In this document: in pieces, positions 18,583 through 44,692 of the stretch
Layout of the letters: each line of letters opens with the position of its first letter
How positions within the stretch are numbered: the stretch's first letter is position 1
From: Dictyophora rubrovolvata
Lineage: Eukaryota; Basidiomycota; Agaricomycetes; Phallales; Phallaceae
DNA: 64,000 nt
NCBI GenBank assembly: GCA_029959195.1
Contig: CP114118.1
Location: 2,940,001-3,004,000 of the forward strand
Direction of reading: 5' to 3'
The notes under the pieces: model-generated
What the model saw: the letters and a program-made list of their open reading frames with translations, nothing else
Told to the model about the DNA's origin: nothing
The model's database searches: none
Program-made: the position numbers and the translations under genes

Positions 18583-20070
18583 ATGTCCTCGATTCTTACC
18601 CCTGAAGGAACCACCGCTCCAAACACCACACCCAGAGAGCGAAATATCGTGATAATAGGAGGAGGAATTATCGGAGTCTGCACAGCGTATTACTTGGCTC
18701 AAGCTATTAATGACTGCCAAGACAATACTCATTCCAAGACCGCTATAACAATTCTTGAAGCGAATGAGATAGCGAGTGGTGCGAGCGGTAAAGCAGGTGG
18801 GTAAGTTCAGCTCCTTTTTGAATGCGTATTATGATGAAGAGCAACATTCCAAATCATCATTACTAGATTCTTAGCGAAAGATTGGCATTCACGGAGCGCC
18901 TCGTCTCTTGGATATCTATCCTTTGCTTTGCACGCGGATTTGGCGCGAGAGTTGAACGGAGAAGTGGTATATGGGTATAGACGTGTCAGGTGTTTCGGAG
19001 GTGCTGTTGACGTCCCGCAACAAGCACAAGAGGGTTCGGGAAATGATCAGACAGAAAAACATCCAGAACATATTGTAGATGTTCCACCAGTTCAGCCTAC
19101 TCGGACACACCCTTCTCCGCTATCGCCCTCTCCAGATGCCCCGACGTGGCTTCGTGCTCCAGAGAATTTTTCGTTAGTAGCAGACGAAGAAACGACAGCT
19201 CAAGTTCATCCGTATCTATTCACACGAACGATATTTCAAGAGTGTTTGACGTTAGGCGTGAAATACGTTCAAGGATGTGCGTTGAATTGGGATCGAGAAC
19301 AAGGCGTGTTAAACGTTCAAGAAGAAACAAGCGAAGAATCCTCTGCTCTGCCCGCGACGACGTTGATAATAACAGCCGGACCGTGGAGTGGCCGTGTAGC
19401 AAACGAGTTAGTAGGGATCAATGTACCGATTAGTTATCTACCGGGCCATAGTCTCATTTTGCAATCACCTACGTCGTCGTCGCTGCACAATCAGGCTCAT
19501 TCCGCTTTTATCGAAATTCAGAACAATGGAAGAAAGAGTTCACTAGCAAGAGATATAACACAGACACCTGAGATATTCCTACGGCCGGATGGAACGATTT
19601 ATGTCGCTGGTGAGAATACGGGCGCGCGGCTTCCTGATGGAACGAAGGAGGTGGATGGTATTATTGATCCTGAGGCTATTGAGAAATTAAGGCGGTCTAT
19701 ACGTGTTTTAGGAATCAAGGGTGTGGAAGTTCGGGAACAGGTATATGTTATTCATTTAGCTCTATAATAATATTGAATAGAAAACTGATTTTTTTTCATT
19801 TATCCTTTACTTGATTAGTTGTGTTACAGACCCTTGACCCGACGTAGCGTTCCAATTATCGGAAAGCTCCAAGATGAAGTTTATATTGCAACTGGGCACG
19901 GACCTTGGGGCATTTCGCTTGGGCCAGGTGGGTCATTTTCCATCAACACACGGTTGTCTTCCTTTTTATTAACGTTTTTAATAGGAACTGGGAAAGTTCT
20001 TTGCGAGGTTATACTGGGTCATTCTTTGAGCGCGAACATTTCGGACCTTGAGCCGAGGATGCATCTTTAG
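18583..20070 (+). CDS. FAD-dependent oxidoreductase (DAO superfamily, Tda3-like)
   Basis: Four exons (18583-18800, 18867-19740, 19819-19927, 19985-20070) give about 428 aa. The N-terminus has the FAD-binding Rossmann motif 'NIVIIGGGIIGVCTAYYLA' (GxGxxG) and 'ILEANEIASGASGKAGG', both typical of D-amino-acid-oxidase-type flavoproteins. The C-terminal end 'YIATGHGPWGISLGPGTGKV' is the second FAD-contacting segment of the fungal Tda3/YHR009-type family. Middle 'TTLIITAGPWSG' is the conserved A-x-G-x-W-S region. The reaction is unknown; yeast Tda3 is a putative oxidoreductase of late endosomes. The start at 18583 is preferred because the only upstream in-frame codons are non-ATG. Confidence 0.85.
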
Positions 20071-20294: not shown

Positions 20295-21651
20295 TTATTG
20301 ATTATCCCATTCCCCTTCGAACTCTTTCATCTCCCGCATCATTTTAACCTCCGACTCTTTGATATGATGCACACAAACACTATTCCAGCCAATCGCTCCG
20401 TTGATCTCATCCACATACGCTCTGCCGGGATAGTCATGCCATCCTCGGTCATCAACGATAATTGTCTCAAGCGGGGTCTCGAGAAGAAGAGGTGGACGAA
20501 CTCGCACGGGTTCGTCCCAGAAGTGTTTCGGGGGTTTTGTGAAAACGTGGAGCGGGTCTGCGAAGTTCTTGAGAGAAGCTAGCCAGGAACCGACCATGAC
20601 GTCGTCGTATGGGTAGTGGATGTGGTGTGGGAGGGGGTATTGTGTTGATAGTAGCGTTTGGACAAGAGAGGAACTGCAAGATTCGGGTGAGCATTAGCAA
20701 CGATTGACAATTAAAACACTCATAAAAAAAGCTACCTTAGCATGTATCCTATCCCTATCGGATATAAAAATGTCGGACCCTCCAGATAAACGTCTTCCTC
20801 TGTCGTGTCTTTGTTGTTGTCGGAGACCGATGTAAGCCAATACCGCGAATGCGGAGACATCCGCGCAATTATCACTGGTTGTTTTCTTGGTACAATATTT
20901 CTTCCTTCGAGAACAGATGGAAGACGGCGCGCCAAGGCACCGAACCGGACGAACGTGTCAGAGTCCAGCGTCATGAAGTAGTCGTAACTTGCGTTCGAGA
21001 ATGAACTCGACTAAAAAGTGATGAGCTTTCTATGAACATCCATAGGCTTACTGGACACACCCATTTCAGACCGTAATATCTCTTTTCCGACAACCTATAT
21101 TTGGATTCTTTGAAATCCAGTATCACCATATCCCCATATTTTTGCTCTTCCTGTCGTAGCGCCTCCAACCGATTTTCATTCCCAAACCAACCATTCGGCA
21201 TTCCAACTAAAAAGCGGTAATCGATTTGAATTTCACTACGACGAACGCCTCCGAACATGTAGTCCCGTAAAAGCTGACGACGCTCAACTTCATCTGAATG
21301 GGATAACACCGCAACACGAATGGACAATGGTGCCTCGATGGATGACGAGGAGTTGACAAACATCCACGCTGGTCGCGGCTCCGTGTCGAAGTTATATATC
21401 GGGGCGGTCCATTTTGCTCGGCGGTTTTTGGATTTACGGATGAATATGACAAGTAAGATGGTGATTGCTAAAACGGTCAAAATGAAAATGATTCTCAGAC
21501 GATGTGAAAGTCGGAGGTGACGAAGACCGCAGAGAGATTTTTTGGACTTGGACTTTGGGACGGTATTGAGTCCATCGAGGTCGTCGGTGTCCTCGGGATC
21601 ACTGGGTAACTTGGTGTATGTGTGAGGGATATACTGTTTTAGTCTAATCAT
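20295..21651 (-). CDS. GT31-like glycosyltransferase (type II Golgi membrane protein)
   Basis: Three exons (21052-21651, 20736-21010, 20295-20673) give about 417 aa. A cytosolic N-terminus is followed by one membrane anchor ('IIFILTVLAITILLVIFI', about residue 55). The lumenal domain has 'RVAVLSHSDEVERRQLLRDY', the usual opening of beta-1,3-galactosyltransferase (GT31) domains. It continues with 'VGMPNGWFGNENRLEALRQE' and the D-x-D sugar-nucleotide motif in 'YDYFMTLDSDTFVR'. 'LEGPTFLYPIGIGYMLS' matches the acceptor-side loop. It probably extends protein- or lipid-linked glycans; donor and acceptor are unknown. An in-frame ATG at 21711 would add 20 residues; 21651 gives a more usual N-terminus. 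Confidence 0.85.
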
Positions 21652-22364
21652 AGGAAGGTCGAGGAAGAGTGCAGAGAGTACGTTGAGTTTACTGAGGTAA
21701 AAGACTTCCAAGGCTGTGGTGTAGCATCAACAGAATGGCGTAGCGATTCGCAAGGGATGTCACTGAAAATTGTCAGCCTGTCAAAACTATATATTAAGTT
21801 TCTCATTTGCCTCATTTGCCAATCACGCTGCGCCGTGTGGTCGTCTAGTATATCTCGCTTCTGTTTGTTAGCGCCAAAAAAATGAACGTAAGGGCCTATA
21901 AGGGCTCGTTGAAGAAGTCGCGACTTCCGACGGAAAAAGAATGCTGTGGTGATATGTAGTCGTTGCCTGGTCAAGCGATATGATGTAAATATCGTCCTCC
22001 ATCTATGTTTTTTTTTTTACTTTGGAATCTACCTTTGACTGCCAAGAGAGGGAGTAATATGAAGGTTCCCTGACATTAAAAGTTTAACGTTGGTCTCGCA
22101 CAATGTGCGAATTCGCTGATGCGTTGACCCTGCACAACCCTGCGCGAATGTCGGAAGCCCTTGGCAATCTTCTTTCATCATGGAAATCATTCCGATCGCT
22201 AATGTAGTCGAGATCAATATCAGTGACAATAATTGATCCAAATGTCACTCCAGGTAATTTCAAACGCTTGATTTCATCGTGATCAATTAAGTACATTTAA
22301 TCACAAACAAAAATCAAACCCAATCATGGGACTCTTTTCAGTCCGAGTCACAGGCTACTCAACC
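21652..22364. other. Intergenic, nothing recognised
   Basis: Upstream of the GT31-like gene and downstream of the amine-oxidase-like gene, both minus-strand. Open frames here overlap each other in several frames and show no conserved features. Confidence 0.45.
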
Positions 22365-24096
22365 TTAGGGGAGTAAATCTTCCACCGTAGACAAGTCAGA
22401 AAGATCCAGCTCCAACGTCCCAACTGCAGGACGATTCTGATCGGAACCATACCACGGCGTGCCAACAGGACGGACGAACGAGAACTTTTCTGCGAGTGCT
22501 GGTTCTAAAGTGTTCTCTATACGATCCGCAACAAGCCTGCCTAGTATAGGTAAAAACTGGAGAGTGTGTTTTGTCTTTGAAAAATGGTTTTCTACTCGAC
22601 TGTTTTGAAATCTTACTTTGAAGGCATGTCCACTTCCTCCCGTTGCAAACATGACCGACCCCGGATAGTCGGGATGAAAGTCTACCATCCAATTGGAATC
22701 TGTAATGGATTCTTTTCTTTAGAGTTTTGATCGTTCCCTCAAAAGTCAAAAATCACCTGGCGTATCTGCATACCTTCGGAAAAAACAAAAATCTCCACAC
22801 AAAGCCCCAATATGGCACCAAACAGTCGTACTCACCAACATAATCTTGTACCCGAAAAATGTAGTTTTCCTAATTCAGGATACACCTCCTTCAGTCTTTC
22901 CCTTAGCTCCTTGATCATCAACCGGGGAATCGCCCCTCCATTTTCATGTGTCACGAATGTTCGTGGAGTGGATATGAGACTGGTATGATCACCAGTTCCA
23001 ACTTCTTTTAGATGGGTGTATCCCGAGGAATGAATTGCCAATTTGACAATATTAGTATCTGGGTGAGGCTAAATACGGAAGAGCGTTTCAGACGTTGACG
23101 ATGGGGCTCAAAATAAAGAGGTCTCTATACCGGGAAAATATAGAATCCTGTGGTATAATCTAATACCACTGGTATATTTCCATATCTCTTGGCTTCTTCG
23201 GACGAAAGTTGTATGGTCGCTACGCATTGTCTAAAGGGGAGATAAGAAACGAAACGACGCCAGAATTATATGGATTATCACCCAGTGGCAACAACCCGTT
23301 CCGTGATTCCCAGCTCCGGAAAAGTACAAGGAGTCCAAGATCCAGTGGCAATTATAACTATGTCTGCTTTTTCCTCCGAGCTGTCTTCAAATGTCACTCC
23401 TTTCCCGTCGCTAGATATCCCAGAGACACTCTTGCCAGGTTCCAGCCGACAGCCTAGTTTCGCAACATGTCTTAAAAGGAGTTCCATAGCCTGTTGAGCG
23501 TTCGCCCAACCACTGTCGACGTTAAGGTACCCATTAAAGTTCAAAATGGTCGATCCTAAAGGAATACCCTCTCCAAAAAAGTTTGGGATGCTGTCAGAGC
23601 TACCGAACTCTTTGATGCGCACACCATGGTCTATATCATTTCGTAATGAGACACTAGCAGAAGAATCTTTCTCGCCTCGTATAAGCACGCCGGACCTTGG
23701 AATTCAACAACTTGTAATTCGGACATCAGACCTATATCAACGAAACTAAAAGACTCACTCGTGATAGGAGTCACCCCAAACATCGGTATTCTTCCAAGCT
23801 TGAATGGCCTCTCTTGTCAATCGCGTGTAAGTAGGGTCGGTATATGACGATCTCACTACTTTGTTTATATCTGCACTTGCAGCATCGGGGGCGGGAAGTG
23901 TTTGAGCTCTATCGTACACGGCTACTCTTGTCCATCCTCGCTGCAGAAGATGATACGCTGTTGATAACCCGAAGGCTCCTGATCCTACGATAACAACCTT
24001 TCGGTTTTTGTCGACATTGATAGCCTCTTGCATTGTCGTATCTGTAGCGGGAATTGCAGTTCGTGGGTAAAGGAACTTGACGCCAATTGACTCCAT
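22365..24096 (-). CDS. FAD oxidoreductase, fructosyl-amine oxidase/sarcosine oxidase-like
   Basis: Seven exons (23759-24096, 23282-23695, 23131-23230, 22836-23068, 22757-22773, 22617-22699, 22365-22556) join without a break to 458 aa. The N-terminus carries 'KVVIVGSGAFGLSTAYHL' (FAD, GxGxxG, residues 38-43), preceded by a 30-residue extension. The C-terminal half has 'CWYADTPDSNWMVDFHPDYP' and 'FATGGSGHAFKFLPILGR'. These are the signature of fructosyl-amino-acid oxidases, L-pipecolate and sarcosine oxidases, where the Lys or Cys near this motif holds the flavin. These enzymes oxidise secondary or glycated amines to release peroxide. The substrate cannot be told from sequence. The fifth exon is only 17 nt but is required to keep the 'YADTP' motif. 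Confidence 0.88.
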
Positions 24097-26762: not shown

Positions 26763-28298
26763 TCAATAAACGGGAAACAGCGGATCTACGTCTCTTGACC
26801 AAGCTCTTAATCCACCAATAACGTCTTTTATAATAAATTTCTTTTCCGCAGTGTTCTTTTGAACATACTCCCTTAAAGAATTCGCAGCAATTTGAGAATC
26901 ATTTCCCAGTCTGCAAATGAGATATATCTCCGTATTTTCATTTGTTACTAAATGAGCTTCGGGGTTTGATGTAATTTCGTCGAGCGGAACGTCTTTAAAT
27001 CCATACATATATGACTAAAGCAAAATGACGAATGAAGAGCAGCACTTACTCTTGGAGTTAGGGAGATGGCAAATACCGAACTCTGTCTTTGTCCTAACGT
27101 CAATTATATTCAATTTATCGCGTGAAGTATCCACTATGCTTTTGAGACCCTATTTATCGATTGAGCTATGAATAAGAAAAGATGATAGAACGCCTTTTCA
27201 CTTGCTCACTTTCACTGAGATTCTGTAATCTGAACCGGGATTAACCATTCCTTCGCGTTCCCAGTCGGGTGCTGGACCATCACAAAATTGAACGTAGTCG
27301 ATATCTTGAATCTCTCCTATACGTTCACCTTCTTTACCACAAGCAGGGCAAGTTGGAGTCTTTGCGAGTGGAATAGCAAGGAAAGGCGACGAGTGTAAAG
27401 CTGAAAATGTCACGAAACATGATTTCATATCTAAGAGATCAAAATCACGAACGCTCAGGATAATATTCTTCTCTGAAGATGATATGAATCATTACCATGT
27501 AGTCCCAGGATGATCTTGATGGCCTCGAGTGCTTGCAACGTGCCAATAACACCAGTTACAACGCCCAGAATACCTGTTTCCTCACACGTCTGTGAAATCA
27601 GAGGCGGTTTAGGAAACAAACATCGATAGCATGGCCCGCTTTCCCCGAGATTGTACGTGCAAACTTGCCCATGAAATTTTTGAGCTGCTCCACTTACGAG
27701 TGGCTTTCCCAAGCGAACGGCGGTGTCATTTAGAAGATACCGTGTCGGTGCATTATCGGTGCAGTCAATTATAACGTCATAGGGTGTGAGGAGCTGAACG
27801 GCGTTTGTTGAATTCAAAGGTTGACTGATAGCCTCAACCTTGACGCGAGAATTCAACCTAATTAAAATAATTATCAAAAGGAAAAAGGTCAATGGAAGTT
27901 TGTTCACTTGGAAATAGCGCGCGCAGCGGATTCGGTCTTGTACAAGCCAAGTGTATGTTCGTTATGAAGAACCTGACGTTGCAAATTGGATATTTCGACG
28001 GTATCGTGATCAATAATTCCGATTTTGCCTAATGAAACAAAAATTTATAAATGTCGACCATCTATGGATTGGGAAATACCGATTCCAGCTGCGGCCAAAT
28101 ACTGCAGCGAAGGGCAGCCAAGACCTCCGGCTCCAACAACTGCAACGGCAGCATTCTGGAGCTTTAGCTGGCCTGTATGAATGTAAATCGAAGAAAAAAA
28201 GATCACTGATTCCGACATTAATTACCCTCCAAACCGAAACCATCCAATATCATCTGTCTACCATATCTTCGATAATCACCAAGAATAAGACACTCCAT
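26763..28298 (-). CDS. UBA4: Uba4: adenylyltransferase (E1-like) and sulfurtransferase
   Basis: Seven exons (28226-28298, 28080-28172, 27908-28028, 27496-27857, 27210-27430, 27050-27149, 26763-26992) give 399 aa. The ThiF/MoeB/E1 domain shows the nucleotide-binding '[20 protein letters not shown]', '[16 protein letters not shown]' and '[14 protein letters not shown]'. Structural zinc is bound by 'CYRCLFP' and 'CPACG'; the E1 cysteine is in '[12 protein letters not shown]'. A C-terminal rhodanese domain carries '[15 protein letters not shown]' with the persulfide cysteine. Uba4 activates Urm1 as an acyl-adenylate and passes sulfur to it for tRNA wobble-uridine thiolation and protein urmylation. 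The start follows a stop codon in frame and gives a short N-terminus; an upstream exon cannot be excluded. It is divergent from a ubiquitin-like gene, 281 bp apart. Confidence 0.92.
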
Positions 28299-28579
28299 TT
28301 GTTACTCCTTTCTGGACAAGGTGCGACTAAGTAAATAGTCTTTCAAATGGGGGGACATTTCAATTTTCAGCGTCGATGTCGCGGCTCTTTTTTTTGAACT
28401 CCGACTAGCGACGTGCCACGGTTGACACATCTTTCTCGTGCCATGAACGCCCGATACCAAATTAATTTATGGTTCCTGGTTCTCTAACATAAAGGAATGG
28501 TGTTGAGGTAGCCATACCTGTTCCCATCCACAATTACCCCAGTCGAACACAGCTTTCAACTAGTCGCTATTCAGAACTC

Positions 28580-29190
28580 ATGCCTATCGTTTCTATCAGC
28601 ATAATCCGCGATGGGAAACCTTTCTCGGATCCCAAATTGTTAATTGACAATTCCAAGACAGTTTTACGTCTGAAACGAGACATTCGCTCGACGAAAGGTG
28701 TAGCAGTTGATGAACAATATCTCTCTTTTTACAAGGAGATTCTACAAGATGATAGAACTCTCGAGTCGTACGGTATTGATGAAGGCTCCAAAATTTCTCT
28801 GAGTGCGCATGCTTGCTTCTATTGGCTTAATCGTCTTTCATTTTTGAACCCCATTTTACACCTCCAGTTGTGCAAACCCCCGGCGCTATGCAAATTTCTT
28901 ATCAAATTTCCGAGAAGCAAGATGTCATCCGTGTCCGTCGGAAAGACATGATTTCTCAAATCAAAGAGAAAATTGCACAAAAGGAGAAAATTAACTCAAA
29001 ACAGTTTTATTTGACCGATGTTTCCAATAAGCGATTGGACGATAACATTACCGTTGGGGGTGCCGGAATCCAAGTGAATGGACATCTTTACTGTGAGTAC
29101 ACAAGTGATTGCCAACTGGCAATTGAGTTATCGCGAATAACGGTCCCTGATTTGGTCTCTAATCTACTTTTAGGCAAGACTCTCTCATGA
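28580..29190 (+). CDS. Tandem ubiquitin-like (UBL) protein, copy 1, without C-terminal Gly-Gly
   Basis: Exons 28580-28802, 28868-29092 and 29174-29190 give 154 aa. The first ubiquitin-like fold (about residues 3-75) shows 'LKRDIRSTKGVAVDEQYLSF', then 'ILQDDRTLESYGIDEGSKIS', matching ubiquitin's helix-to-beta5 region. The second (about 80-150) shows 'ISQIKEKIAQKEKINSKQFY' and 'ITVGGAGIQVNGHLY'. Both introns are in phase 1 and each of the first two exons encodes one UBL. The paralogue at 33774 shares exactly this layout. The short last exon gives CKTLS, so no diglycine tail is present; it could be a UBL adaptor rather than a modifier. It shares a 281-bp divergent promoter with UBA4 and precedes an RBR E3 gene on the same strand. 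Confidence 0.85.
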
Positions 29191-29486
29191 TCAAGGGCCT
29201 TAGACAAACTGTTTGGGCCAGAAAGGTTAATCGGGATGCACTCACCTCCATAGCTTTGCCAGATCCGATGTATTATCCATCGATCTATGTTTTAATAAAG
29301 TGCTACGTCGACCTTGCATATTGTTTTATTTATGTCTCCCATGTGACTATCCCATTACAGCCTTATGGTTAGATTGGAACGCCGATTCCCGAGAAACCCA
29401 TGAAACTATCAATCGAAGTGAAATCCACAATAATACTGCACGTTCTGTTGTTTTCCATCTAGCTTTCACCAGACGTCTCCTCAACA

Positions 29487-30385
29487 ATGGCGGTATGCCT
29501 TGAACCAAACTGTGGTAATGAGATCTACCAACAACCTCAGCAATCCTGCGCTCATTCTCTGAGTCTTTGTGCTGAACATACCAGCGCTCATATCCATACG
29601 TTTATCTCTCGAGGGGAAAGTGATGTCAAATGTCCTCAGAGTCAAAATGGATGTCCTGGAACGCTTTCCACGAAGAGTATTGCTCAATTCATAAAACCGG
29701 CAGATGAGCGTCAGTAAGGCCCTTTTCTACCTTTTTAAAATCGTAATATCGCACGTTTCTCCCCAGATACTTTCGTCAAACGGTGCAGATCGCCAAAGAC
29801 AAGCACCCAGGTCGCACAAACTGTCCGTACTGTGGATATTTAATCTTTCATATTGGAGGCGGTATGTTCCTGCAGAGTTTTATTTATCGCTGTCTGTAAT
29901 AACTTCAATTGCGACACAAGACGAAACTCCAATCGTACATTGCGCCTATTGTAATCATGTGTTTTGTCATAAACACAGGGTCGTTTGGGAAGATGGTCAT
30001 AACTGTGATACCTATGAAATCTTTCAAGCAGGAAGCAATATGCATGGGTGCCCTAATTGTAAAGTTTTAGTAAGTGCAGAGTTAAAGCCCTGAAACGAGG
30101 AAAATGTAACGTTCATGCTTGTTTCGTCTCGTCAGATGACCAGAGTATCCGGGTGAGACGCTTTCACATCTCGTTAAACATTCTGGTGATTTTCTTACCA
30201 CTTTTCAGTTGTAATTACATGAGATGCGGTGAGTTTTTCCATGAAACAGACTGCTTATTACGAACACGAAGATCTGATATATTCATTGAAAAGCGTCGTG
30301 CGCTTTTATCTTTTGCTGGATCTGCTTGAAACAGTGGTTTGATAAAGAACATCCCAGCCATTGGATTTGTCCTTTCACAAAGTAG
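29487..30385 (+). CDS. Compact RBR-type (RING-IBR-RING) E3 ubiquitin ligase
   Basis: Six exons (29487-29713, 29767-29861, 29921-30069, 30136-30152, 30209-30228, 30294-30385) give 199 aa. The IBR-like part shows 'TNCPYCGYLIF', 'HCAYCNHVFCHKH' and 'DGHNC'. The RING2-like end 'GCPNCKVLMTRVSGCNYMRC' continues 'ASCAFIFCWICLKQWF', i.e. CxxC...GCNYMxCxxC...FCWxC. By family rule C164 (in SGCNYMRC) would be the catalytic cysteine that takes ubiquitin from the E2. The first 75 residues have spaced cysteines and histidines (C4, C9, 'CAHSLSLCAEH', 'KCPQSQNGC') and may be a divergent RING1. Most RBR ligases are over 400 aa, so this is unusually small. RING2 is assembled from three tiny exons; all joins keep frame. 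Confidence 0.82.
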
Positions 30386-31212
30386 TATTGCTTTAGCGAT
30401 TTTAGTTGGGAAATAATACTCTATGATCATTTGGGATCAAAATTATGGTCGTTCAAGTATTGTTCTTTCGCACGTATGACCGTCAATATGGAATCAATAA
30501 ATAAGATAAATCTTCATAGTGTACGGACTGCCCACAGTTGGCCCACAGACTACGACAGGCTACAGCCGTCACGGTGGGACCTCGCCGAGCTGCACATGTC
30601 CTACATGTCCTAGCGTTAACTAATCGGCAAGGTGGCGCTGTTTTTTTCCTCCAAGCACAGAAATACATCACGATGCGTATCTTCGCTTTGCTCGATATGT
30701 CTACAATTTCAGGACACCGCTATTCATTTGGCACAATCTCAGGACACTGCTGTTCTCTTGGCATAATTTCAGGACACCATTGTTCTTTTGGCACAGGTTT
30801 TCAGGACAATATCGAATTTGACGTCGGCGGACATTCATCCATCATGCATCACGAATTAAGCCCGCGGACGGCTCCCAAAGAGCCATCTCTTCCATCAGTC
30901 CAAATAAATGTCGCATGAACCGGAAAATAACTAAAGAGTCAGCTTCTTCAAGCAGCATCAGCACAGGTTTGGCAAAGTAATGTAATCTGCTTAGGTTTTG
31001 AATGTCGACAGTTTTGGGGTTACAGCTTTTGGCGGCTCCGGTCCCTTCAACGAGTGACACGACATCGATAACTTTCCTTCCTAATTAGTCAACAGCCTGT
31101 CAAGTTAAATTTATTTGAGGTGAAGTTATCAATCGATTGTTTATATCGTCCATAGTAGAGCTCATCGTTCAAACCAACGCTGAATTCGTCTTATATCTAC
31201 TAACGTGTTAAG
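30386..31212. other. Gene-free stretch holding a minisatellite
   Basis: No gene is supported. A minus-strand frame (31060 leftwards) runs open through the tandem repeat at 30701-30808, reading a 10-residue unit LCQxNxxVLx three times, but it has no recognisable family and may be chance. Confidence 0.4.
30701..30808 (+). repeat. 30-bp tandem repeat, about 3.5 copies
   Basis: Units beginning tttcaggacac and containing ttggca recur at about 30-31 bp spacing (near 30707, 30737, 30767 and a partial at 30797) with scattered substitutions. Confidence 0.8.
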
Positions 31213-33180
31213 ATGTTCGTTCGTCCCGATGTCAGATACAGAGTCCAAAACGTCGATTTTGGAACGTATTTAGAGAGACGTGGTAAAGTAAACCTTTACT
31301 TGCGTGCTCATAAAGATGGCAACAAAAGACAATAGGTTAGGATAAAGCATTAATAGTTAATCGAACGCCCCTCATCTTCTTTCGATAGTGGTACTTTGTC
31401 GAAAACACAAAGGGATCTGGAGTGTATGAAATTCAGAACGCGGATGATCCCAGCTATTGCATATCATCCACTGTGTCTGTAGTTTCTGCATCAAAGACTG
31501 CGAAAAATAAGCTTTGGAAGATTCCTCAGGTCCCGGGAAGACCAACTGTTTAGTGCGATATTTCTCAGTGACGTTTACTTCTGGATATTTACTGATCTTA
31601 TTGTTGTTAGTCTGATCAATGCAAGTCCAGGAGTTGGCGACGAAGATGTCTTGCTATTCGCCAAAGGCGGATTTGAACTCGTAAGGCTTTTTTACCAAAT
31701 CGGCTCCTAAATTCTTTTCTCATGCATTGATCAGAGTGTCGAACAAGATGAGGGCGTTGAGGAAATTGATAGAATCGTATGGTTTTAAATCATTTAATGC
31801 TGATATTTTATTTTACTAACTGATGTAATCGCAAAGATGAAAAATGAGGAGTACCGATGGAGGATCATCGAAGCAGCACCGGCTTCACTTCCGGATGGCG
31901 ATGGAGAATATCGCATCCGAACCTTAAACGGTGATGCTATTCACAGCACTAAAGTGGGTGGTCGTAAAGTGGTCTCAATCCAGAATCAAAACCGGGGAGA
32001 TCAACGAGCCGTACGTTTCTCTCTTCTGTCAAACTTCTTTTGCGTTTTTTTTTATCAAAGCTCGACTTATAGTGGGAAATAAAAAATGACGGGAACGGGC
32101 GTTGCACCATCAGAAATATTCTCGAGAAAACATATCTTTGTGCCGAGAAGGTTGGCGGGAAATGGGTTCCAGGATTTTCAAAGACCCCTAATGACAATAC
32201 TACCTGGAGAATTAAACCGACCAGTGATTTTACATATTCGTACGATTTTTTTTGTTGTTTTTTGAAACCAAAACTTGAGAATAAACCGTCCTCCCCCCCA
32301 GATTTTGTATTGGACTAACTTTGGATCCGTCTAAGCCTAAGACCGAAACGCAGATGTCCCTTAGTGTGGACGAAAAGACGGTACGTCGCTATATCACCAT
32401 GTACTCGAGATTTCAACTTGAACCGAATGGAAATGAAGATCATTTTGAAACCAATGAAGGTATTTATACCATCCATTGATTCTACAGATTTTTACTCAAG
32501 TTCTCCATGAAGTCAGCGCACAATCAACTCTGGTGTATAGAAGCCACGGACGCACCTGTCACACGACCTTTGACTGAAGGCGATGATGATGACGGATCTT
32601 CTAAAACATACCATGGTGTAAAACTTGGGAAGGATTATTTACTTCGATTTGGTGGTACATCCGGACTGTACGTTTCAATCAACATGCGCGATAGTACGGT
32701 TTCCGGTAATACCGAAGATGACGCCAGCGACGTGAATCGTCTTTTTATCTTTGAAAATATTTGACACTAATATTCCTTCTCAGGTCACTCTTGAGAGAAA
32801 CCCTAGGGGAGGTGGGAACTCTGATGTCATAGATGTTTATCTTTCGTATACCCTAAATGGCCAGACGAAATATCTCGCTTTGAAAGGCACTTCCCTAATT
32901 TTGGACGCCAATTATTACCCATGGAAAATAGAAGAACACCCTGATGAAACTGGACACTTTTAGTATGTAACACGCCTCATTTTTTGAATGTGATAATTTA
33001 TTTTTCATAGTATTTGCGATGGCAATCAGTCTGACCGTATCTTAAGCGGTGGCTCAACTGGGGCCGGGGTATGTAATTTCTTTCGACAGAATTTACCTGC
33101 GTCTCACGTTGTGTTTTTAGATTACCGCGACTCAATCCAAGAGTGATACGAATAGTTTGTGGGAATTCATACCTGCTTAA
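31213..33180 (+). CDS. Multi-domain beta-trefoil protein (ricin-B-like fold)
   Basis: About eleven exons from ATG 31213 to stop 33178-33180. Several successive beta-trefoil blocks end in W-containing strands: 'KLWKIPQ', 'YRWRIIEA', 'NTTWRIKPTS', 'NQLWCIEATD', 'SLWEFIPA'. Other typical strands are 'VQNVDFGTYLERRG', 'YLINASPGVGDEDVLLFAKG', 'CTIRNILEKTYLCAEK', 'YLALKGTSLILDANYYPWKI'. In mushrooms such proteins are cytoplasmic lectins or protease inhibitors; which applies here is unknown. There is no signal peptide. An oddity: the family pattern requires exon 1 to end 'DGNKRQ' followed by 'WYFVEN', but a TAG codon lies directly before the donor (near 31333-31336). Either a non-obvious splice is used or the allele is damaged. 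The join near 32380-32510 is also uncertain. Confidence 0.68.
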
Positions 33181-33773
33181 GAGCGCCGTTTATTATAATC
33201 TAACTACTTGCCTTATGCGACAATCTGAAATAAGACCCCTATAAATTGTAAACAAATGTTTCAAAAGAGATATTGAAATTCCAATATATGTTCAGCACAT
33301 TAATAATTGCATAAATCTAGACAATGTGTCCAGAGAGTCCGATTTTGGTATGGTTGACACGTGTTGCCAAACATTTCATATTGGTGAGATTATGAAAAAG
33401 GTAGAAGGTTCTTGTATCATGGCTTCCGATTTCTGAGCGGAAAATAATAAATATTTTCTGACAGGGTTCCTTTTAGAATGGTGTGCTTCGTCGATCGATT
33501 AGTAAAAATGTTATGCATAACAAATTGAACTCGGCCTCAAAACGTTTCCGTCCAGTTCGCCTTCTGTATTCTTCTATTTGGCATGGTCCAGTATATCAAT
33601 TTGAGCACAGGGTCACGGGTTCAGTCTTCACTAAGCTTTCAGTCGTTTATTTAAGCGCGTTCTTGTTGATGACACCGAATTGCAAGTTCAAACTTCTCAA
33701 ACCCGTGCTTTGACACCTGCTCAATTCATCGTACAGTCGAACAAACACCATCCACGGTACATTAGGACGCCCT
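33181..33773. other. Intergenic, nothing recognised
   Basis: Lies between the beta-trefoil gene and the second UBL gene on the same strand. Short frames only; should contain the UBL gene's promoter. Confidence 0.45.
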
Positions 33774-34405
33774 ATGGGTAACGAGATCATAATAAACGTA
33801 ATCGAACGGACACCAGATGGAGAGAAATCCCTCAATCCCAATGGTAGTCCTAGCTCACTCCAAATCAACGACGACAAGAAAGTTGGCACCCTTAAACGAA
33901 ACATCAGAGACTTGTACGCAATCCTTGTAGATCAACAAGTTCTCTATTACAATGGCAGTATTCTTTTGGATACAACATTGGTTAGTGTTATTGGGAATAA
34001 TGGGACGATTTATCTTCGTACGTCCAAGTAGAAGAATTTGTGGCATGTTGCAAAGCATATACTAATTATGAACGGTTTAGGTCGGCCAACCGTCATCGAA
34101 ATTTACTATTACAATAACACCTTGAATGGAACCACCAAAATGCAGCACCTCATCGACTTGAACGACACCATTGAGCGAGTCAAACAACGCATCATTACGA
34201 CAGATAATCCAGCGGCATATACCGTCACGTTCCAACAGACTCCTGCCGAGGCTTCTAGAAAGTTAGAGCCCGAAGATACTTTAACAGTCGGGAATGCAGG
34301 CATCAAAGAATTTGGTATACTTCATCTACGTAAGTCCTTAGATGTATGGAAAGATACTTGTTTTTATTCAATCATTCGACAGTTCGCAATGTTCCTGGTG
34401 GCTAG
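33774..34405 (+). CDS. Tandem ubiquitin-like (UBL) protein, copy 2, ending in Gly-Gly
   Basis: Exons 33774-34017, 34081-34329 and 34383-34405 give 171 aa. The first UBL has 'VGTLKRNIRDLYAILVDQQV' and the second 'DLNDTIERVKQRIITTDNPA' and 'LEPEDTLTVGNAGIKEFGIL'. The short last exon encodes the tail so that the protein ends 'HLLRNVPGG' directly before the stop. That is the free diglycine end of mature ubiquitin-like modifiers such as ubiquitin, Urm1 and ISG15 (itself a tandem UBL). No processing by a protease would be needed. Intron positions and phases (1 and 1) equal those of the gene at 28580, so the two are duplicates. Conjugation is inferred, not shown. Confidence 0.85.
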
Positions 34406-37740: not shown

Positions 37741-40700
37741 CTCTGATGGTGCGCTTTGATTCCTATAAGCACTTTATTTCTCACCGATCGAATTTAGGGC
37801 AATAAGGAGTTTAGCAATCTTCTTGATTACCTTGAGAGCTGTCGATGCATTACTGGACAAGACAAACAACAACTCTCCCGGCAAATAATCACTGACGAAG
37901 GTCTTAAACTTCTCGACCTTATCGTTTTGTTTTCAGGAAGCTACGGGGCGAATGACTTTCTTTGCTCGCTGCCTATCGATCTCAAAGAAACCGCTTCCTC
38001 GGCTGTTCTATCGTTCGCTGATCTAATTGCCATAGATTTCGCATATAAGTATGTCATTTAATCAGTTTTTGTCTCGTTTCTAGCATGGCTTATTCTTTTC
38101 GAGTACATGGAACAACCTCAGCGGATGGAAGAGCATCCATTTGATTTCTTTCAAAGTCAAAGCACGCAAAGGCGTCACTCAAACGTTAACTTGGACATTC
38201 CCTTTTGGATCATGTTATTCTTCTAAAAATTTGCGATCCTATCACCTGACGCACGATGGTCCTGTCAATGTAAACATAAAATGGCCCGTATACTCACAAA
38301 GATCTTTGAAAGGCGATTATCGGGGTGTTTTGAAACTGGAAGCCGCTGTACAGAATAGTATCCAAGAAACTCATGTAAGATATGTTGGATTTTACTGACA
38401 ATTATCTAATCCAATTGCAGGTGGTTGGAAATCTTTTGGTGGTGTACGAACAAGCGCCGCGCTACGCGATGACGTTTACAGATAGCTCATACACAATTAA
38501 CCAATACACCAATGCGATGACTTTTCTTTTCACATTTTTCAATCTACCTGCCTACCTCCAATCGAGCCTCGACCAGGATATCAGAGGTAGTGTTGCTTGT
38601 GTTCATGTTGATGTACGTTTTTGACTTTGGCTCATTTTGCTCCAGAGTTGGCCCGAAAACTGAGAGATTTGGGTTTGAACACTCAAATGACAAATGTCGG
38701 ATTTGTCTTGGAAAAAACGTTGTCTAATGTCTTCTTAAAGGAAATCGGAGGAGATATCTATTCCAAAAGTGCTCCTTCGTCAGGACCCTGTGACTGGTGG
38801 CCATTTCTGGCCAACTCATTCTTAATTAACAGCCTACGTGTCATAGTCAGACCCGCTGAGCCGCTTACGTTCTCAAAGGTAAAGTTGTTTACTGTTTGTT
38901 TTATTATATAACTAGACGCTTTTCTTCCAGATATTGGCCCAGTTGGATGGGAGCATGACAGGATTCAAACCAGCAGTGCCATTCAGGCTGTTGGCAGGAG
39001 TATCCGCAAAGGACTTTGTGTTCAAATTCAGCCTTTCCCCGGATGAAGATCGTAATTTGTCCATCCAAGAAATACTCAACGTTATCGAAATGTCTTCGCT
39101 TCTTGATGTCAACAGGACCTTTCCGTCAGTAAGCAACCTCACCAACTCAGTCTCCATCTCTACGGCAGCTCTCGAGTTAGGAAATAAAGGGATTAATTCC
39201 TTTCATTTGGGAATGGACATTGATGACTGGAAACTTATCCCGGGTACTTTAGAGATTGTAGAGCTTTCAATCGACATCTATTCGACCTTTCCTCGCACGT
39301 CAAAACAATTTGGCCTCTCTGCTACTGGTGTTACCACTATCTCCGGATTCAACTTGGGAGTTGGTCTCGAAATACAGAACAATAATATTGCATTCCGGTT
39401 GCTGACTGTGGAAAGTCCTTTGACACTAAAGTCCATTCTTGAACACTTTTTCCACCAAAGCAACACGCTGTTTCCTCAGACATTCCTTTCCATCCTCGAT
39501 CAAGTGGGGGTTGAAAACGTGGTAATCGAGGGCAATCGAGAAAACGATAAATGGTCGCTTTCTCGTTTTACACTTTCAACAGCAATCAATGTACAGCTCG
39601 ATATCTCAGGTTTGTATCTTGAATTGTGCCTTTTTTTCTTCAAACTCATTTTATTTCCGTAGATAATTTTAGTCTGTCGTATCCGAAAGTCGTTGTCGAT
39701 GTTGCCTATCCCTTCACAGCTGTAAGTCAAATCCATTATCTCATTTGCTAATTTTGTTGATCCTTTGCGTTGTCCAGAACCAACGAAAAGTCAACACGAC
39801 AATTGCTGCAGTCATAGAGCTATCCGATACATTCTGCGAGACTACAATCTCTTGGACCGGAGCGAATTCCAGTCTCGGTTTGATGATTCAGCCACTGAAT
39901 GAGCCTCTATTGTTGCAAACGTTAATAGGCGTATTCTTCCCAAGTAGGCGTTCTAGTTCCAAAGCTTGGAATGCGTAGATATAGACTTTGACACTGCTTT
40001 AGAGGATACCACATTGTCTGTTCCGCCCTCCGTTTCATTTCTTCTGAACCTTGGACTCGCGAACGCCCAGGTCACACTAAGCTCAGCTAACAAAAAATTC
40101 ACCCTTGCCGAGATATCTGCTACCATCGTGTCAACTTCTTCTCTCAGGCTTTGGACGGGACTTGAGCTGACAAATATCCTCCTCTACTTCAGCTACTCTG
40201 CCCTTCAACCTGGAGAAAGCAACAAGTCAGTCGTTTTACATGCTACGCTACAGATCGCCGACACGAACCTCGATGCGATTCTTTCTTACGGTAATCAAAC
40301 TGTTCCCGTCGCGGTTGACGAAAACGCTGCACCTCAGGACGATTCGGGGCGAACAGTGACCGCGAAAGCGGATGAAACTTGGGTTGCAACGGCTACTTAT
40401 GATGGAGAAATTTCTATTTTGGATATTATGTCAAGCATTGCCAAAATTGATTTACGCAATGAACTATCTTCGGTCGGGCTTTCCGCCTTACAGGATATGA
40501 TCGATATCGAGCTATCAAACTTAGAACTCGTACTTACCCGTCAAGAACGCAAGGTGTCATTCGTCTTTGATGCCCACGTCAAATACCTATTTTTCGACGG
40601 TCCGGTGCGTCTCACATGCGCTAGATCGACGTCGTGGATGTATTCCTTCACATTTGGTTTATCACCCGAGAAATTCCTGTCGAACTTCGGGATTCAAGAA

Positions 40701-43090
40701 GTCCTCACGTTAACGGACACGATTATTTCCCTGGGAAACACAAAGTCCGGCCTCAGCTTTGGGTTTAAAACGACCCTGGTACTCCAAGGTACATTGAAGA
40801 ACATAGGGAGGGCAATCAACTTCGATAGTGTGACCATCGAGGGTTCTGTCAGCGACAAACTTATTGATTTAGCTGTTACAACCCCGGCAATGACCATCTT
40901 CAACGACATGCGCCTAACAGGAAGCCTAATTTTCTCTTTTTCAACGAGTTCCAAGGTGCTCAAAATTGCGATTCAAGGTAAGAAATATGGAATACGTCAT
41001 TCTTATAGAAAAAGCTCTTATCATTTGATTAGGCACAGTCAGCAATATTTCTTTCCCTCAAATTTCTAGCGAGATATTTACAACAACATTCTCGCTTTTT
41101 GTCAAACTTCCAATCCCAGAACTCGGCTTCGCGTGCACGGTAGATAAGTTGACAAACGCATTCGGCCTTAATAGTCTCAATTTCCGAGACCTTCTTTTGA
41201 GCGCGGCTTTCCAAGAATTCCCTATTCCTTCAGAAGTCGCCGTCACCGGGGCAATGGATTTCCAAGTAGATAATCAGAAGTTCCTTGGCAGGTATGGTTC
41301 GATTATAATTTCAGCTGGTTTAGTAGTTGATGCGATATCCGCAGTCTGGCTATTTATTTCAGCGAGTTGAATTTGACGCAGTCTGGTACGAAAGGAAGCT
41401 TTGAGACGTAAGAAAACCGAGACGATCATTCTAGTCCATTTCTCATCATTTATTCAGATTTCCGACATTAAATCAAGCACTACAAGGGTTTGATTCGGCT
41501 CAACGCAAGGCTCCCGAAGCTGTAGACGGAACCTTCATTGCTCTAGAATTCTCTCAAGCTCTCCAGGAGGTTACTGTCGGAAACATGACGATAAAACAAG
41601 GACTCGAGCTGAAAGGGGACCTCAAATTACCTTGTCTCGACTTTGAAGCATTCTTCGAGATCAATATTGCCCCATTGCTCGTACATATTTCAGGTCATAT
41701 CAAAGATGCTATTGCCGTCGAAATCGGAAATGTTCGACTATTTGCCCTTACGAATACTTCGGATGCTAATCGTGGGCCAACATTGGATCTCAACCTAGAG
41801 ACTACATCTATACCTACTTGTCACTCATCCGGCACTCTCTTTGTTCTCGGGTTATCCTCCAGCGTCGAGATGGATTTATATGACGACGGCTTCAAGTACG
41901 ACAATACGATTACTACTCCAACGTCCACCGCTAGTATCAAGTTTGCCATAACAAAGACATACCTCGACTTGTACATAGCTCGAGGCTTTGAGCTGTCAAT
42001 TCCGTCCATAAAGATTGGTATTACTCCAATACCAAAGATCAATATAGTCAAATTCGACGCGTCATTCAGCACAAAAGTCAATTGGTCGGGTGTGGCGTGG
42101 AATTTGAAAGTCATGGGTCACGCTAAAGTCGGCGACTTGGACTTGGGGACAATTGGGCCAATCACTATAGACGCTAGCCTCTCAGATTTCGAAAAAATAG
42201 CAGAGTGGCTTGTAAACTGGATTTCTCAGGAGCTGGGTGACCTACTTAAAAACGTAATCCGTGATAAACTACTATCTGAGGGCCTGCAGGCGGTCATAGA
42301 AGTCCTTAAAACTATAGGGCTTGGCTTTGAGGACACCGTCAATCTACTTACGAAAGAATTTGGTTATGGTCTTGATACAGTAACTAAGGAGGCGGTCAAA
42401 GTATTCGATCTGACTATCGCTGAAGCTGGGCAATTCTTGAAAAATTTAGGTCACGGTGCCGAGGAAATCGCAAGGTGAAAACTAGTACCATCATCTATCG
42501 CGACGGGGGCGACTAACATATGTGATAATCAAACCAGGCTTTTGAGCGATGTTTTCGACGTCGTTCCTAACACAATTGCCAACGTACTGAGAGATCTAGG
42601 ATTTGCCGCTGAGGACGTAGGGAGGTGAGTATTATTAGATTGCCGTTCATTGTGTTTTTGTATAAATGTTTCTTGTCACACCCAAGAATACTGTCTGACG
42701 TTTTTGGACTTGCTCATACCGAGGTATTTAATATCCTGAAGGATGTAGGATATTATACCATCGACGATGTCACGAGGTCAGACATTCATCAGTGCTTATA
42801 ATATGACTCCTATACTTTTATCATCATTAAACCACTTTTTTTCTGCTAGAGAAATCGGTAGCGTATTCAACGTTGCTATGGACGCAGTTGAAAATGTTAC
42901 CAATGATATTGGTAATGCTGTGGGAGGGGTAATAGATGATGTCGGGAATGCAGTGGAAGGGGTGGTGAACGATGTCGGGAATGGGGTGGGTAACGTAGCA
43001 AAGTTAGTCAATAGACTTTTCACTGCCACCCGTGTATCAACTTATGCTTCGTACAGTGACGTTTTTGACGCGATTGGCAGTATTTTCTAG
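37561..43090 (+). CDS. Very large protein of unknown function with C-terminal helical repeats
   Basis: Fourteen exons after the first are well supported: 37798-38048, 38104-38374, 38421-38586, 38646-38878, 38931-39609, 39663-39721, 39781-39943, 39979-40977, 41033-41291, 41363-41407, 41458-42474, 42538-42624, 42687-42776, 42850-43090. They give about 1,520 residues in one frame. The first exon is uncertain (start 37561 or 37687, donor after 'KAGKRRTHC'). The bulk is beta-rich, with recurring stretches such as 'GLEIQNNNIAFRLLTVESPL', 'GLANAQVTLSSANKKFTLAE' and 'VAVTGAMDFQVDNQKFLG'. This suggests several related 200-250-residue domains. The end is a series of about 30-residue amphipathic repeats ('LLSDVFDVVPNTIANVLRDLG', one per exon). 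No signal peptide, enzyme motif or known domain was recognised. Confidence 0.75.
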
Positions 43091-43943: not shown

Positions 43944-44692
43944 GCGTCATGCCGGACTAGTAGTGACGAACTGGACCTCGTGGCCTGTCTTTTTTTTTTC
44001 AGATTTCGTAGATTTTGATTGGGCTCACAATCGTCATACAGACCTACCCAACGCTTGTATAATCCCAACTGTGATGTCACGGACTAGTTTGATTTATTAT
44101 TTTTTGTAGCCTGATCCCTAATGGGTCCTGCTCTTTTTCACTGACCGGTGAGTCGTGACCTCCTCTCGGTTCGCTTTGACCCTCACCTTTGCATCTTCCC
44201 GTCTTCCTCGATATGAAACGAACGGACTCCAATCAGTACATATAGTCCAGTGAGCTACAGCCTACAGCCAATGAAGGAAATAATACATCTCAAAATCCCA
44301 ATTTGTAAGTATGGTATTCATTTGAAAATGCATACCGCGGTCATACCTCAGTTTACCTAGGTATGGCAGGTACCATCTGTCACTGGCATATGTACTAGTT
44401 TGGTACTACGCCCATATCCATTACCTAATACACATCCTTTTCCTTCCCAACTCCAACCCGAATCATCGACTTAGACGTACGTTGAGCATGTTAAAGGCCA
44501 AACGTGGAATGATTAGGCACGAAAGGCAGTAAATAGAAAGGTCTAACGGAAATTCTCAAAGACATCTCAAGGTTAGTTGTAAAAACGCGCTAGAAGCCTC
44601 GGGGAGGCAGACATTGAATACCGAAGCGCTGACGTAAAATAGGCTCTGGAGATAGCTCCTCTGTTGGCTCCGCCTTCTCAAAAGAAGCCACG
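43944..44692. other. Intergenic, nothing recognised
   Basis: Lies upstream of the F-box-type gene; no coding segment or repeat stood out. Confidence 0.45.

What the first reader, a model, noticed from the sequence alone, without database searches (positions are those of the whole stretch)
26763..34405. Ubiquitin-like conjugation neighbourhood: E1-like Uba4, two tandem-UBL proteins and a compact RBR ligase within 8 kb
UBA4 (minus) is divergent by 281 bp from a tandem-UBL gene. An RBR-type E3 gene follows it on the same strand, then a beta-trefoil gene, then a second tandem-UBL paralogue. An activating enzyme, two modifier-like proteins and a ligase side by side are not expected by chance in a eukaryote. 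Together they could form a small lineage-specific modification system. Uba4 normally serves Urm1, so a functional link is inference; the adjacency and the protein features are seen in sequence.
Basis: partly seen in the sequence, partly recalled or inferred. Interest (0 to 1): 0.8.

Follow-up and report, generated by a model that had tools for sequence, protein, structure and literature searches.

The report
Fungal diubiquitin-derived modifier gene cluster
Next to each other in a fungal chromosome lie two genes descended from the ubiquitin gene, one ending in the Gly-Gly tail used to tag other proteins, together with a tagging enzyme (ligase) and a spare copy of an activating enzyme, so the fungus may have evolved its own version of the vertebrate ISG15/FAT10 protein tags.

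Summary
In detail: UBA4, UBL1, RBR, a beta-trefoil gene and UBL2 lie at 26763-34405, and the four ubiquitin-pathway genes splice into intact frames. New facts: (1) Both tandem-UBL genes derive from polyubiquitin. All four domains are ubiquitin-related, and three of four introns sit exactly at codon 70 phase 1, where this genome's polyubiquitin introns sit. (2) UBL2 ends ...LLRNVPGG-stop, a ready-made Gly-Gly tail; UBL1 ends ...CKTLS and has none under plausible splicing. (3) The RBR is complete: RING1 (by eye), IBR, and RING2 with Cys164. (4) The window UBA4 is one of two copies (225 of 391 residues identical, six shared introns); the other is closer to solved Uba4, and Urm1 lies elsewhere. 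Most likely UBL2 is an ISG15/FAT10-like modifier that arose independently in a fungus. Asn at position 72 argues against the ubiquitin E1. Charging by this UBA4 and transfer by this RBR are unproven. A UBL1-RBR fusion is an open rival. Conservation in other fungi could not be tested.

The parts
26763..28298 (-). UBA4a: E1-like adenylyltransferase plus rhodanese, 399 aa, exons 28298-28226, 28172-28080, 28028-27908, 27857-27496, 27430-27210, 27149-27050, 26992-26763; one of two UBA4 copies in the genome
28580..29190 (+). UBL1: two ubiquitin-like domains, 154 aa, exons 28580-28802, 28868-29092, 29174-29190, ends HLYCKTLS, no Gly-Gly
28803..28867 (+). UBL1 intron 1, at ubiquitin codon 70 phase 1, as in the polyubiquitin genes
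29487..30385 (+). RBR ligase, 199 aa, RING1-IBR-RING2, predicted catalytic Cys164, exons 29487-29713, 29767-29861, 29921-30069, 30136-30152, 30209-30228, 30294-30385
29463..29473 (+). good 3' splice-site match (exon would start at 29473) just upstream of the RBR ATG, in frame with UBL1 exon 2: possible UBL1-RBR read-through, or end of an RBR 5' UTR intron
31213..33180 (+). beta-trefoil (ricin-B-like) gene lying between RBR and UBL2; exons not modelled precisely; no sign of a ubiquitin role
33774..34405 (+). UBL2: two ubiquitin-like domains, 171 aa, exons 33774-34017, 34081-34329, 34383-34405, ends LLRNVPGG-stop
34330..34382 (+). UBL2 intron 2, at codon 70 phase 1 of domain 2; the last exon encodes the tail that ends in Gly75-Gly76

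Best explanation
Two tandem ubiquitin-like genes here descend from a polyubiquitin gene: a two-unit piece diverged, then was copied, giving UBL1 and UBL2 (shown by sequence and intron position). UBL2 kept a translated-mature Gly-Gly end and is most likely a conjugated di-UBL modifier that works like ISG15 or FAT10 but arose independently in a fungus (inferred). It is charged by an E1 other than the ubiquitin E1, because residue 72 is Asn, not Arg (inferred from published E1 selection work). The neighbouring RBR, whose Cys164 and RING2 zinc ligands are intact, is the likeliest ligase, and the second UBA4 copy next door a candidate E1 (inferred, weaker). UBL1 lost Gly-Gly and would act as a non-covalent partner or as the N-terminal part of the RBR.
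For: UBL2 residues 24-171 align with linear di-ubiquitin through the final Gly-Gly (single di-ubiquitin chains E 0.0004 to 0.008; the 2.6e-14 of eight-unit chains sums repeats). UBL1 hits ubiquitin chains, ISG15 (3.2e-10) and FAT10 (3e-8) in the PDB. All four domains beat 2000 of 2000 shuffles against ubiquitin in local alignment; in global alignment UBL2 domain 1 was reached by 2 of 2000. UBL1 and UBL2 pair best domain for domain. Introns lie at codon 70 phase 1 in both polyubiquitin genes (2 and 4) and in 3 of 4 UBL introns exactly (mapping by hand). Intact frames at about 30% identity are not expected under drift: 7 of 2000 simulations stayed open. RBR complete. Two UBA4 copies, both intact. 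In print, HHARI (an RBR) is listed among ISG15 E3s and Parkin (an RBR) attaches FAT10 to itself in vitro (PMC12355090, passages); clones selected by the ubiquitin E1 all kept Arg72 (PMC3731359, passages).
Against: No experiment, expression or comparative data. Whole-genome searches with UBL1 and with UBL2 at E up to 1 matched ubiquitin but not each other, so their kinship rests and the introns. UBL2 domain 2 is divergent: Pfam E 0.009 alone, lone-exon fold useless (pLDDT 45); the better model (69.6) used an alignment containing ubiquitin. The UBL2 tail has Asn72 and Pro74; the selection paper says that non-native residues at Arg74 and Gly75 block E2-to-E3 transfer to HECT and RING ligases. No E2 or protease gene was found nearby. 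UBL1 lacks Gly-Gly. Some model splice sites score low (UBL2 donor 1 2.3; RBR acceptors 2 and 3 -1.3 and 0.6), so transcripts are needed.
Confidence: 0.5

Rival explanations
1. Chance neighbourhood. UBL1 and UBL2 are fast-evolving polyubiquitin descendants that act without conjugation (adaptors or inhibitors of ubiquitin-binding proteins), UBA4a backs up Urm1 activation, and the RBR is an ordinary ubiquitin ligase.
For: UBL1 has no Gly-Gly. UBA4a keeps every Uba4 feature checked and nothing shows a changed specificity. Urm1 is present. The colocation test is post hoc. A beta-trefoil gene interrupts the group.
Against: UBL2 ends exactly at position 76 with Gly-Gly although about 70% of its residues differ from ubiquitin. 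Random placement rarely gives RBR plus E1-like beside one ubiquitin-family locus.
Confidence: 0.27
2. UBL1 and RBR are one gene: a tandem-UBL-RBR ligase built like Parkin or HOIL-1, with UBL2 as a separate modifier. Not exclusive of the best explanation.
For: A 3' splice site scoring 8.7 (as good as the UBL1 one, 8.6) lies 14 bases before the RBR ATG and joins UBL1 exon 2 in frame to the RBR; AG sites scoring 8.6 or more occur once per 1255 bases per strand (102 of 7392). The RBR protein starts 3 residues before its first Cys. RBCK1 (HOIL-1) is among its best PDB matches, 3.2e-5.
Against: It needs a 380-nt intron; 21 reference introns are 49-77 nt. The 81-nt UBL1 intron has a good acceptor, a branch-like site and about the ancestral position. 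The acceptor could instead end a 5' UTR intron (donor at 29368, 105 nt).
Confidence: 0.2
3. A dedicated cascade (a stronger form of the best explanation): UBA4a activates UBL2 by Uba4 chemistry, possibly through a thiocarboxylate, RBR attaches it, UBL1 regulates.
For: UBA4a is a second copy, somewhat less like solved Uba4 than UBA4b (232 against 257 bits), beside UBL1 and RBR; Urm1 is elsewhere; MoaE was not detected, so no evident molybdopterin role for a second copy.
Against: Uba4 normally works without E2 or E3, whereas RBRs take their modifier from an E2 (recalled). Against MoeB the two copies score alike (191 and 189 bits), so UBA4a is not clearly the faster one. Nothing shows that UBA4a binds a di-UBL. 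The MoaE search can miss intron-split genes.
Confidence: 0.2

Closest known systems
ISG15 (vertebrate interferon-induced modifier)
   Same: two tandem ubiquitin folds, Gly-Gly end, RBR ligase HHARI among its listed E3s; UBL1 matches it at 3.2e-10
   Different: ISG15 is made as a precursor and uses UBA7, tail LRLRGG (recalled); UBL2 ends LLRNVPGG-stop, needs no trimming, and its introns tie it to fungal polyubiquitin
FAT10 / UBD
   Same: two tandem ubiquitin folds, translated mature, tail CYCIGG without Arg72; Parkin can attach it
   Different: uses UBA6; no orthology to UBL2 is suggested, the origin here is local polyubiquitin
BilABCD operons of bacteria
   Same: ISG15-like BilA with an E1 beside it (PMC11354881, passages)
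   Different: Bil has an E2 and a JAB peptidase in the operon; here neither was seen among the ORFs scanned and the ligase is an RBR
Urm1-Uba4
   Same: UBA4a is a Uba4-type E1
   Different: Urm1 is another gene (C6:684058; tail read by eye as STLHGG); UBL2 gives no Urm1 match in Pfam
Ariadne/HHARI, HOIL-1 (RBCK1), Parkin RBR ligases
   Same: RING1-IBR-RING2 with RING2 Cys; best PDB sequence matches
   Different: only 199 aa with no accessory domain unless fused to UBL1; the protein search of the genome did not match the other four IBR loci at E up to 1

Membership tests
ISG15/FAT10-type tandem UBL modifier (works like; not claimed as ortholog) | two ubiquitin-fold domains in tandem | tested here: met
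   UBL2 domain 2 rests on a shuffle test and an alignment-guided model
ISG15/FAT10-type tandem UBL modifier (works like; not claimed as ortholog) | C-terminal Gly-Gly | tested here: met
   UBL2 yes. UBL1 no: of 134 isoforms enumerated, 22 carry one and the same Gly-Gly-bearing end (LLNNGGMP), which overlaps the RBR start codon and needs introns of 127-403 nt; not favoured
ISG15/FAT10-type tandem UBL modifier (works like; not claimed as ortholog) | E1 thioester and covalent conjugates | not testable with these tools
   needs biochemistry
ISG15/FAT10-type tandem UBL modifier (works like; not claimed as ortholog) | common descent with vertebrate ISG15 or FAT10 | tested here: inconclusive
   the polyubiquitin intron position points to an origin in the fungal lineage; no tree and no intron comparison with ISG15 or FAT10 genes were made
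polyubiquitin descendants | similarity to consecutive ubiquitin units and shared intron at codon 70 phase 1 | tested here: met
   3 of 4 introns exact, the fourth at codon 69-71 depending on gap placement
RBR E3 ligase | RING1-IBR-RING2 with catalytic Cys and zinc ligands in RING2 | tested here: met
   C151 C154 C164 C169 C172 C177 C180 H189/H192 C195; IBR and IBR_1. RING1 assigned by eye (C4 C9 C21 H23 C28 H31 C49 C56), no Pfam RING1 match
RBR E3 ligase | ligase activity through Cys164 | not testable with these tools
   needs biochemistry
Uba4/MOCS3 E1 | ThiF domain with active-site Cys loop plus rhodanese with active Cys | tested here: met
   both copies keep CYRC..CPAC, TCxExGxLG and C(R/K)LGNDSQ (motif roles recalled)
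Urm1 | Urm1 profile match | tested here: not met
   UBL1 and UBL2 give no Urm1 hit at E up to 1; the only Urm1 match in the genome is C6:684058
BilABCD-like operon | E2 and JAB peptidase next to E1 and di-UBL | tested here: inconclusive
   10 of the 196 ORFs kept went to Pfam, neighbours; none E2 or JAB; most ORFs were not scanned
Parkin/HOIL-1 architecture | UBL and RBR in one polypeptide | tested here: inconclusive
   an in-frame acceptor exists but needs a 380-nt intron

The most novel reading that the evidence does not exclude
A self-contained fungal modification system: a duplicated Uba4 (normally the sulfur-relay E1) has been recruited to charge a di-ubiquitin-derived, Gly-Gly-ended modifier, which a dedicated compact RBR (perhaps fused to a GG-less UBL1) attaches to proteins. 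This would be an independent invention of an ISG15-like pathway, with a non-canonical E1 feeding an RBR ligase.
Probability: 0.18. Interest if true: 0.88.

Novelty: new variant of a known kind. Interest (0 to 1): 0.62.

Why it matters
ISG15 and FAT10 are usually discussed as vertebrate immune modifiers (recalled). A fungal di-UBL with a Gly-Gly end, whose introns still mark it as former polyubiquitin, would show in one genome how a new modifier is born from ubiquitin. It would also make a clear test possible: which E1 takes a tail with Asn72, and whether an RBR and a second Uba4 evolved with it.

Tried and rejected
First RBR model (202 aa) ended in a non-canonical RING2; rejected when donor 30229 and acceptor 30294 gave the full RING2. 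My first UBA4 model had an odd seven-residue loop and proved out of frame; the acceptor before 26992 gives the usual NVPL. The seven-residue insert that I wrote into a notebook entry is therefore wrong.

Segmental duplication of the whole group from C2:0.95-1.2 Mb: window ORFs of 40 aa or more matched only the RBR copy and ubiquitin in 30 kb there and only UBA4 in 19 kb round UBA4b. Rejected for the stretches examined.

Viral or bacterial origin: RBR gave 0 relatives in viral contigs; the UBL-plus-ubiquitin alignment gave 4 loci, which encode ubiquitin or ubiquitin chains; the UBL pair gave 0 in genome contigs.

Dedicated E1 among canonical E1s: SCCH gave one weak match, FCCH and 4HB none, probably because introns split these genes, so nothing follows. 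By eye, ThiF loci at C8:1211 kb and C4:782 kb carry Uba3-like and Uba2-like catalytic motifs (motifs recalled). A Uba1 gene was not pinned down.

Lone-exon AlphaFold of UBL2 domain 2 gave pLDDT 45 and was dropped. The bacterial promoter and terminator scan says nothing for a fungus and was dropped. Rows dropped from the intron scan: three of the five listed for polyubiquitin C2, each removing exactly 228 bases, artefacts of the repeat.

Core-residue retention (54 of 60 core against 57 of 228 other positions hydrophobic) is partly circular because the alignment rewards it; the core list is recalled.

Papers: 10 of 10 searches used. No listed title or abstract start described a fungal ISG15- or FAT10-like tandem UBL or a paired Uba4, but six of the ten listings were capped and only open-licence PMC is held. 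I read passages of four papers (PMC11354881; PMC5913265; PMC3731359; PMC12355090), none in full.
Full report
What is there. The window is C2:2940001-3004000 of a 28.2 Mb genome in 11 contigs for which no relatives are held. I rebuilt four genes by splicing. UBA4a runs on the minus strand from 28298 to 26763 (399 aa). UBL1 is 28580-29190 (154 aa), RBR 29487-30385 (199 aa), UBL2 33774-34405 (171 aa). A beta-trefoil gene at about 31213-33180 was not modelled precisely. Introns of the four modelled genes are 50-81 nt with GT and AG ends.

Origin of the UBL pair. Polyubiquitin is the nearest match of both in this genome (UBL1 1.6e-11, UBL2 only 0.02) and no other tandem copy was found; at E up to 1 the two UBL genes did not match each other. 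Against the PDB, UBL2 residues 24-171 align to linear di-ubiquitin through to the last Gly-Gly (single chains E 0.0004 to 0.008), and UBL1 matches ubiquitin chains, ISG15 and FAT10. In shuffle tests all four domains beat 2000 of 2000 shuffles in local alignment against ubiquitin (z 5.95 to 13.7); in global alignment UBL2 domain 1 was reached by 2 of 2000. UBL1 and UBL2 pair best domain 1 with domain 1 (z 8.6) and domain 2 with domain 2 (z 5.8, 1 of 2000 shuffles as good). UBL1 domain 1 with UBL2 domain 2 gives z 4.0, the two UBL2 domains z 2.6, the two UBL1 domains z -0.5 and UBL1 domain 2 with UBL2 domain 1 z -0.8. I read this as one two-domain ancestor. They are 27% identical.

The introns are the strongest evidence. 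In this genome the polyubiquitin gene on C2 has two introns and the one on C5 four introns inside codon 70, phase 1; the C5 gene and both ubiquitin-ribosomal fusions have a codon 35 intron. The fusions were a limited control: by eye their frames break again near codon 72, an intron that the scan could not see. UBL1 intron 1 and both UBL2 introns fall at codon 70 phase 1 exactly, and UBL1 intron 2 at phase 1 of codon 69-71 depending on a gap (mapped by hand). The UBL1 junction still reads MQI as between ubiquitin units. The last UBL2 exon supplies a tail of the same length as in ubiquitin, ending Gly-Gly-stop.

Constraint. Drifting a two-unit ubiquitin frame to 30% identity by random substitution left 7 of 2000 frames open, mean 5.3 stops. 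UBA4a and UBA4b differ at 82% of synonymous but 29% of non-synonymous sites. RBR and its second copy differ at 89% and 28%. Synonymous change is saturated, so constraint is shown but not its strength.

The tail. Counted from the end, UBL2 has Leu70 Arg71 Asn72 Val73 Pro74 Gly75 Gly76. A phage-display study reports that every clone selected by the ubiquitin E1 kept Arg72, whereas NAE accepts uncharged residues there, and that changes at Arg74 and Gly75 block later transfer to HECT and RING ligases (PMC3731359, passages). FAT10 ends CYCIGG and is still activated, by UBA6 (PMC12355090, passages). So UBL2 is unlikely to be a Uba1 substrate, and its E1 is open. In the domain 2 alignment the Lys48 and Lys63 positions are Arg and Glu, as expected for a modifier that does not build the usual chains (inference).

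UBL1. Its domain 2 ends HLYCKTLS. Of 134 enumerated isoforms, 22 reach a single Gly-Gly-bearing end that overlaps the RBR start codon and needs introns of 127-403 nt; the 21 reference introns are 49-77 nt. I do not favour it.

The RBR. Corrected splicing gives C151 C154 C164 C169 C172 C177 C180, H189 or H192, C195 in RING2; Pfam finds IBR and IBR_1. RING1 is my reading by eye. Acceptors of introns 2 and 3 score low (-1.3 and 0.6); the reading frame and the match of the second copy across them support the model. PDB matches include ARIH1, RBCK1, parkin and ARIH2. In this genome it did not match the four IBR loci but is 57% identical over 116 residues to a copy at about C2:966102-966695 that lacks RING1 and part of RING2. 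That copy lies about 9 kb from the C2 polyubiquitin gene.

The E1. ThiF gave 14 matches, 3 of them under the curated cut-off, which I grouped as eight loci; one is a second UBA4 at C2:1195889-1194344. The two copies share 225 of 391 residues and all six intron positions and phases. UBA4b scores 257 bits and UBA4a 232 against solved Uba4, but 189 and 191 against MoeB. Urm1 is at C6:684058. MoaE was not detected, though split genes can be missed.

Is the grouping chance? Random placement gave an RBR-type locus within 1.5 kb of any ubiquitin-family locus in 0.9% of 200,000 trials, an E1-like locus in 1.2%, both at one locus in 2 trials. Placement was uniform, contig lengths for C3, C7 and C9 were assumed equal, and the test was framed after the fact.

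Fold. UBL2 domain 2 with a five-row alignment gave pLDDT 69.6. By their entry titles the 50 Foldseek PDB matches listed (69 had E 0.001 or better) are ubiquitin, its variants or fusions, NEDD8, ISG15 or SUMO; best E 1.1e-4, query TM 0.58-0.71. Because one row was ubiquitin this is partly circular; the lone exon gave pLDDT 45.

Mechanism. Shown: polyubiquitin descent, intact UBL2 with Gly-Gly, complete RBR, duplicated intact UBA4. Inferred: UBL2 is attached to proteins (about 0.55); the local RBR is its ligase (about 0.35); UBA4a is its E1 (about 0.2). UBL1 may be a partner, or with the RBR one polypeptide, since a good in-frame acceptor lies 14 bases before the RBR ATG.

Known or new. It works like ISG15/FAT10 but is not filed as their ortholog. 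Bacterial Bil operons show that such neighbourhoods exist (PMC11354881, passages). A fungal HECT paper says that detailed studies of E3 evolution are lacking in fungi (PMC5913265, passages). I rate it a new variant of a known kind. Nothing similar appeared among the papers listed by ten searches, six of them capped, which is weak evidence of novelty.

Noticed in passing
G000 C2:966102 to about 966695 (L047 1103-1696): Partial second copy of the compact RBR, lacking RING1 and the last RING2 ligands, about 9 kb from the C2 polyubiquitin gene; no other flanking similarity to the window in 30 kb.
   Followed up: partly
G000 C2:1194344-1195889 (L059): Second UBA4-type E1, same six introns as the window copy, with a tRNA-Thr gene about 100 bases upstream of its start.
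   Followed up: yes
L067 2053-2745 and L068 5001-5435 (viral contigs): Ubiquitin chains whose first unit is ordinary and whose later units are diverged and joined by extra linkers (GGTDGTGSGTKQ, GGLDGEGSKQ): possible viral parallel of diverged ubiquitin units.
   Followed up: no
G000 C11:10711-10836: Truncated ubiquitin copy, apparently a pseudogene.
   Followed up: no
window 1610-2686 minus: Open frame that looks by eye like a Tc1/mariner-type transposase (sequence printed); not tested with a profile.
   Followed up: no
window 18838-19764 plus, 23281-23703 minus, 20974-21726 minus: Two FAD-dependent oxidoreductase (DAO) frames flank a galactosyltransferase-like frame.
   Followed up: no
window 44633-45304 plus: F-box-like domain just under the Pfam cut-off, another possible ubiquitin-pathway gene 10 kb away.
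   Followed up: no
window 39957-42475 plus: Two long open frames (370 and 347 aa), possibly exons of one large gene, without a Pfam match at 0.01.
   Followed up: no
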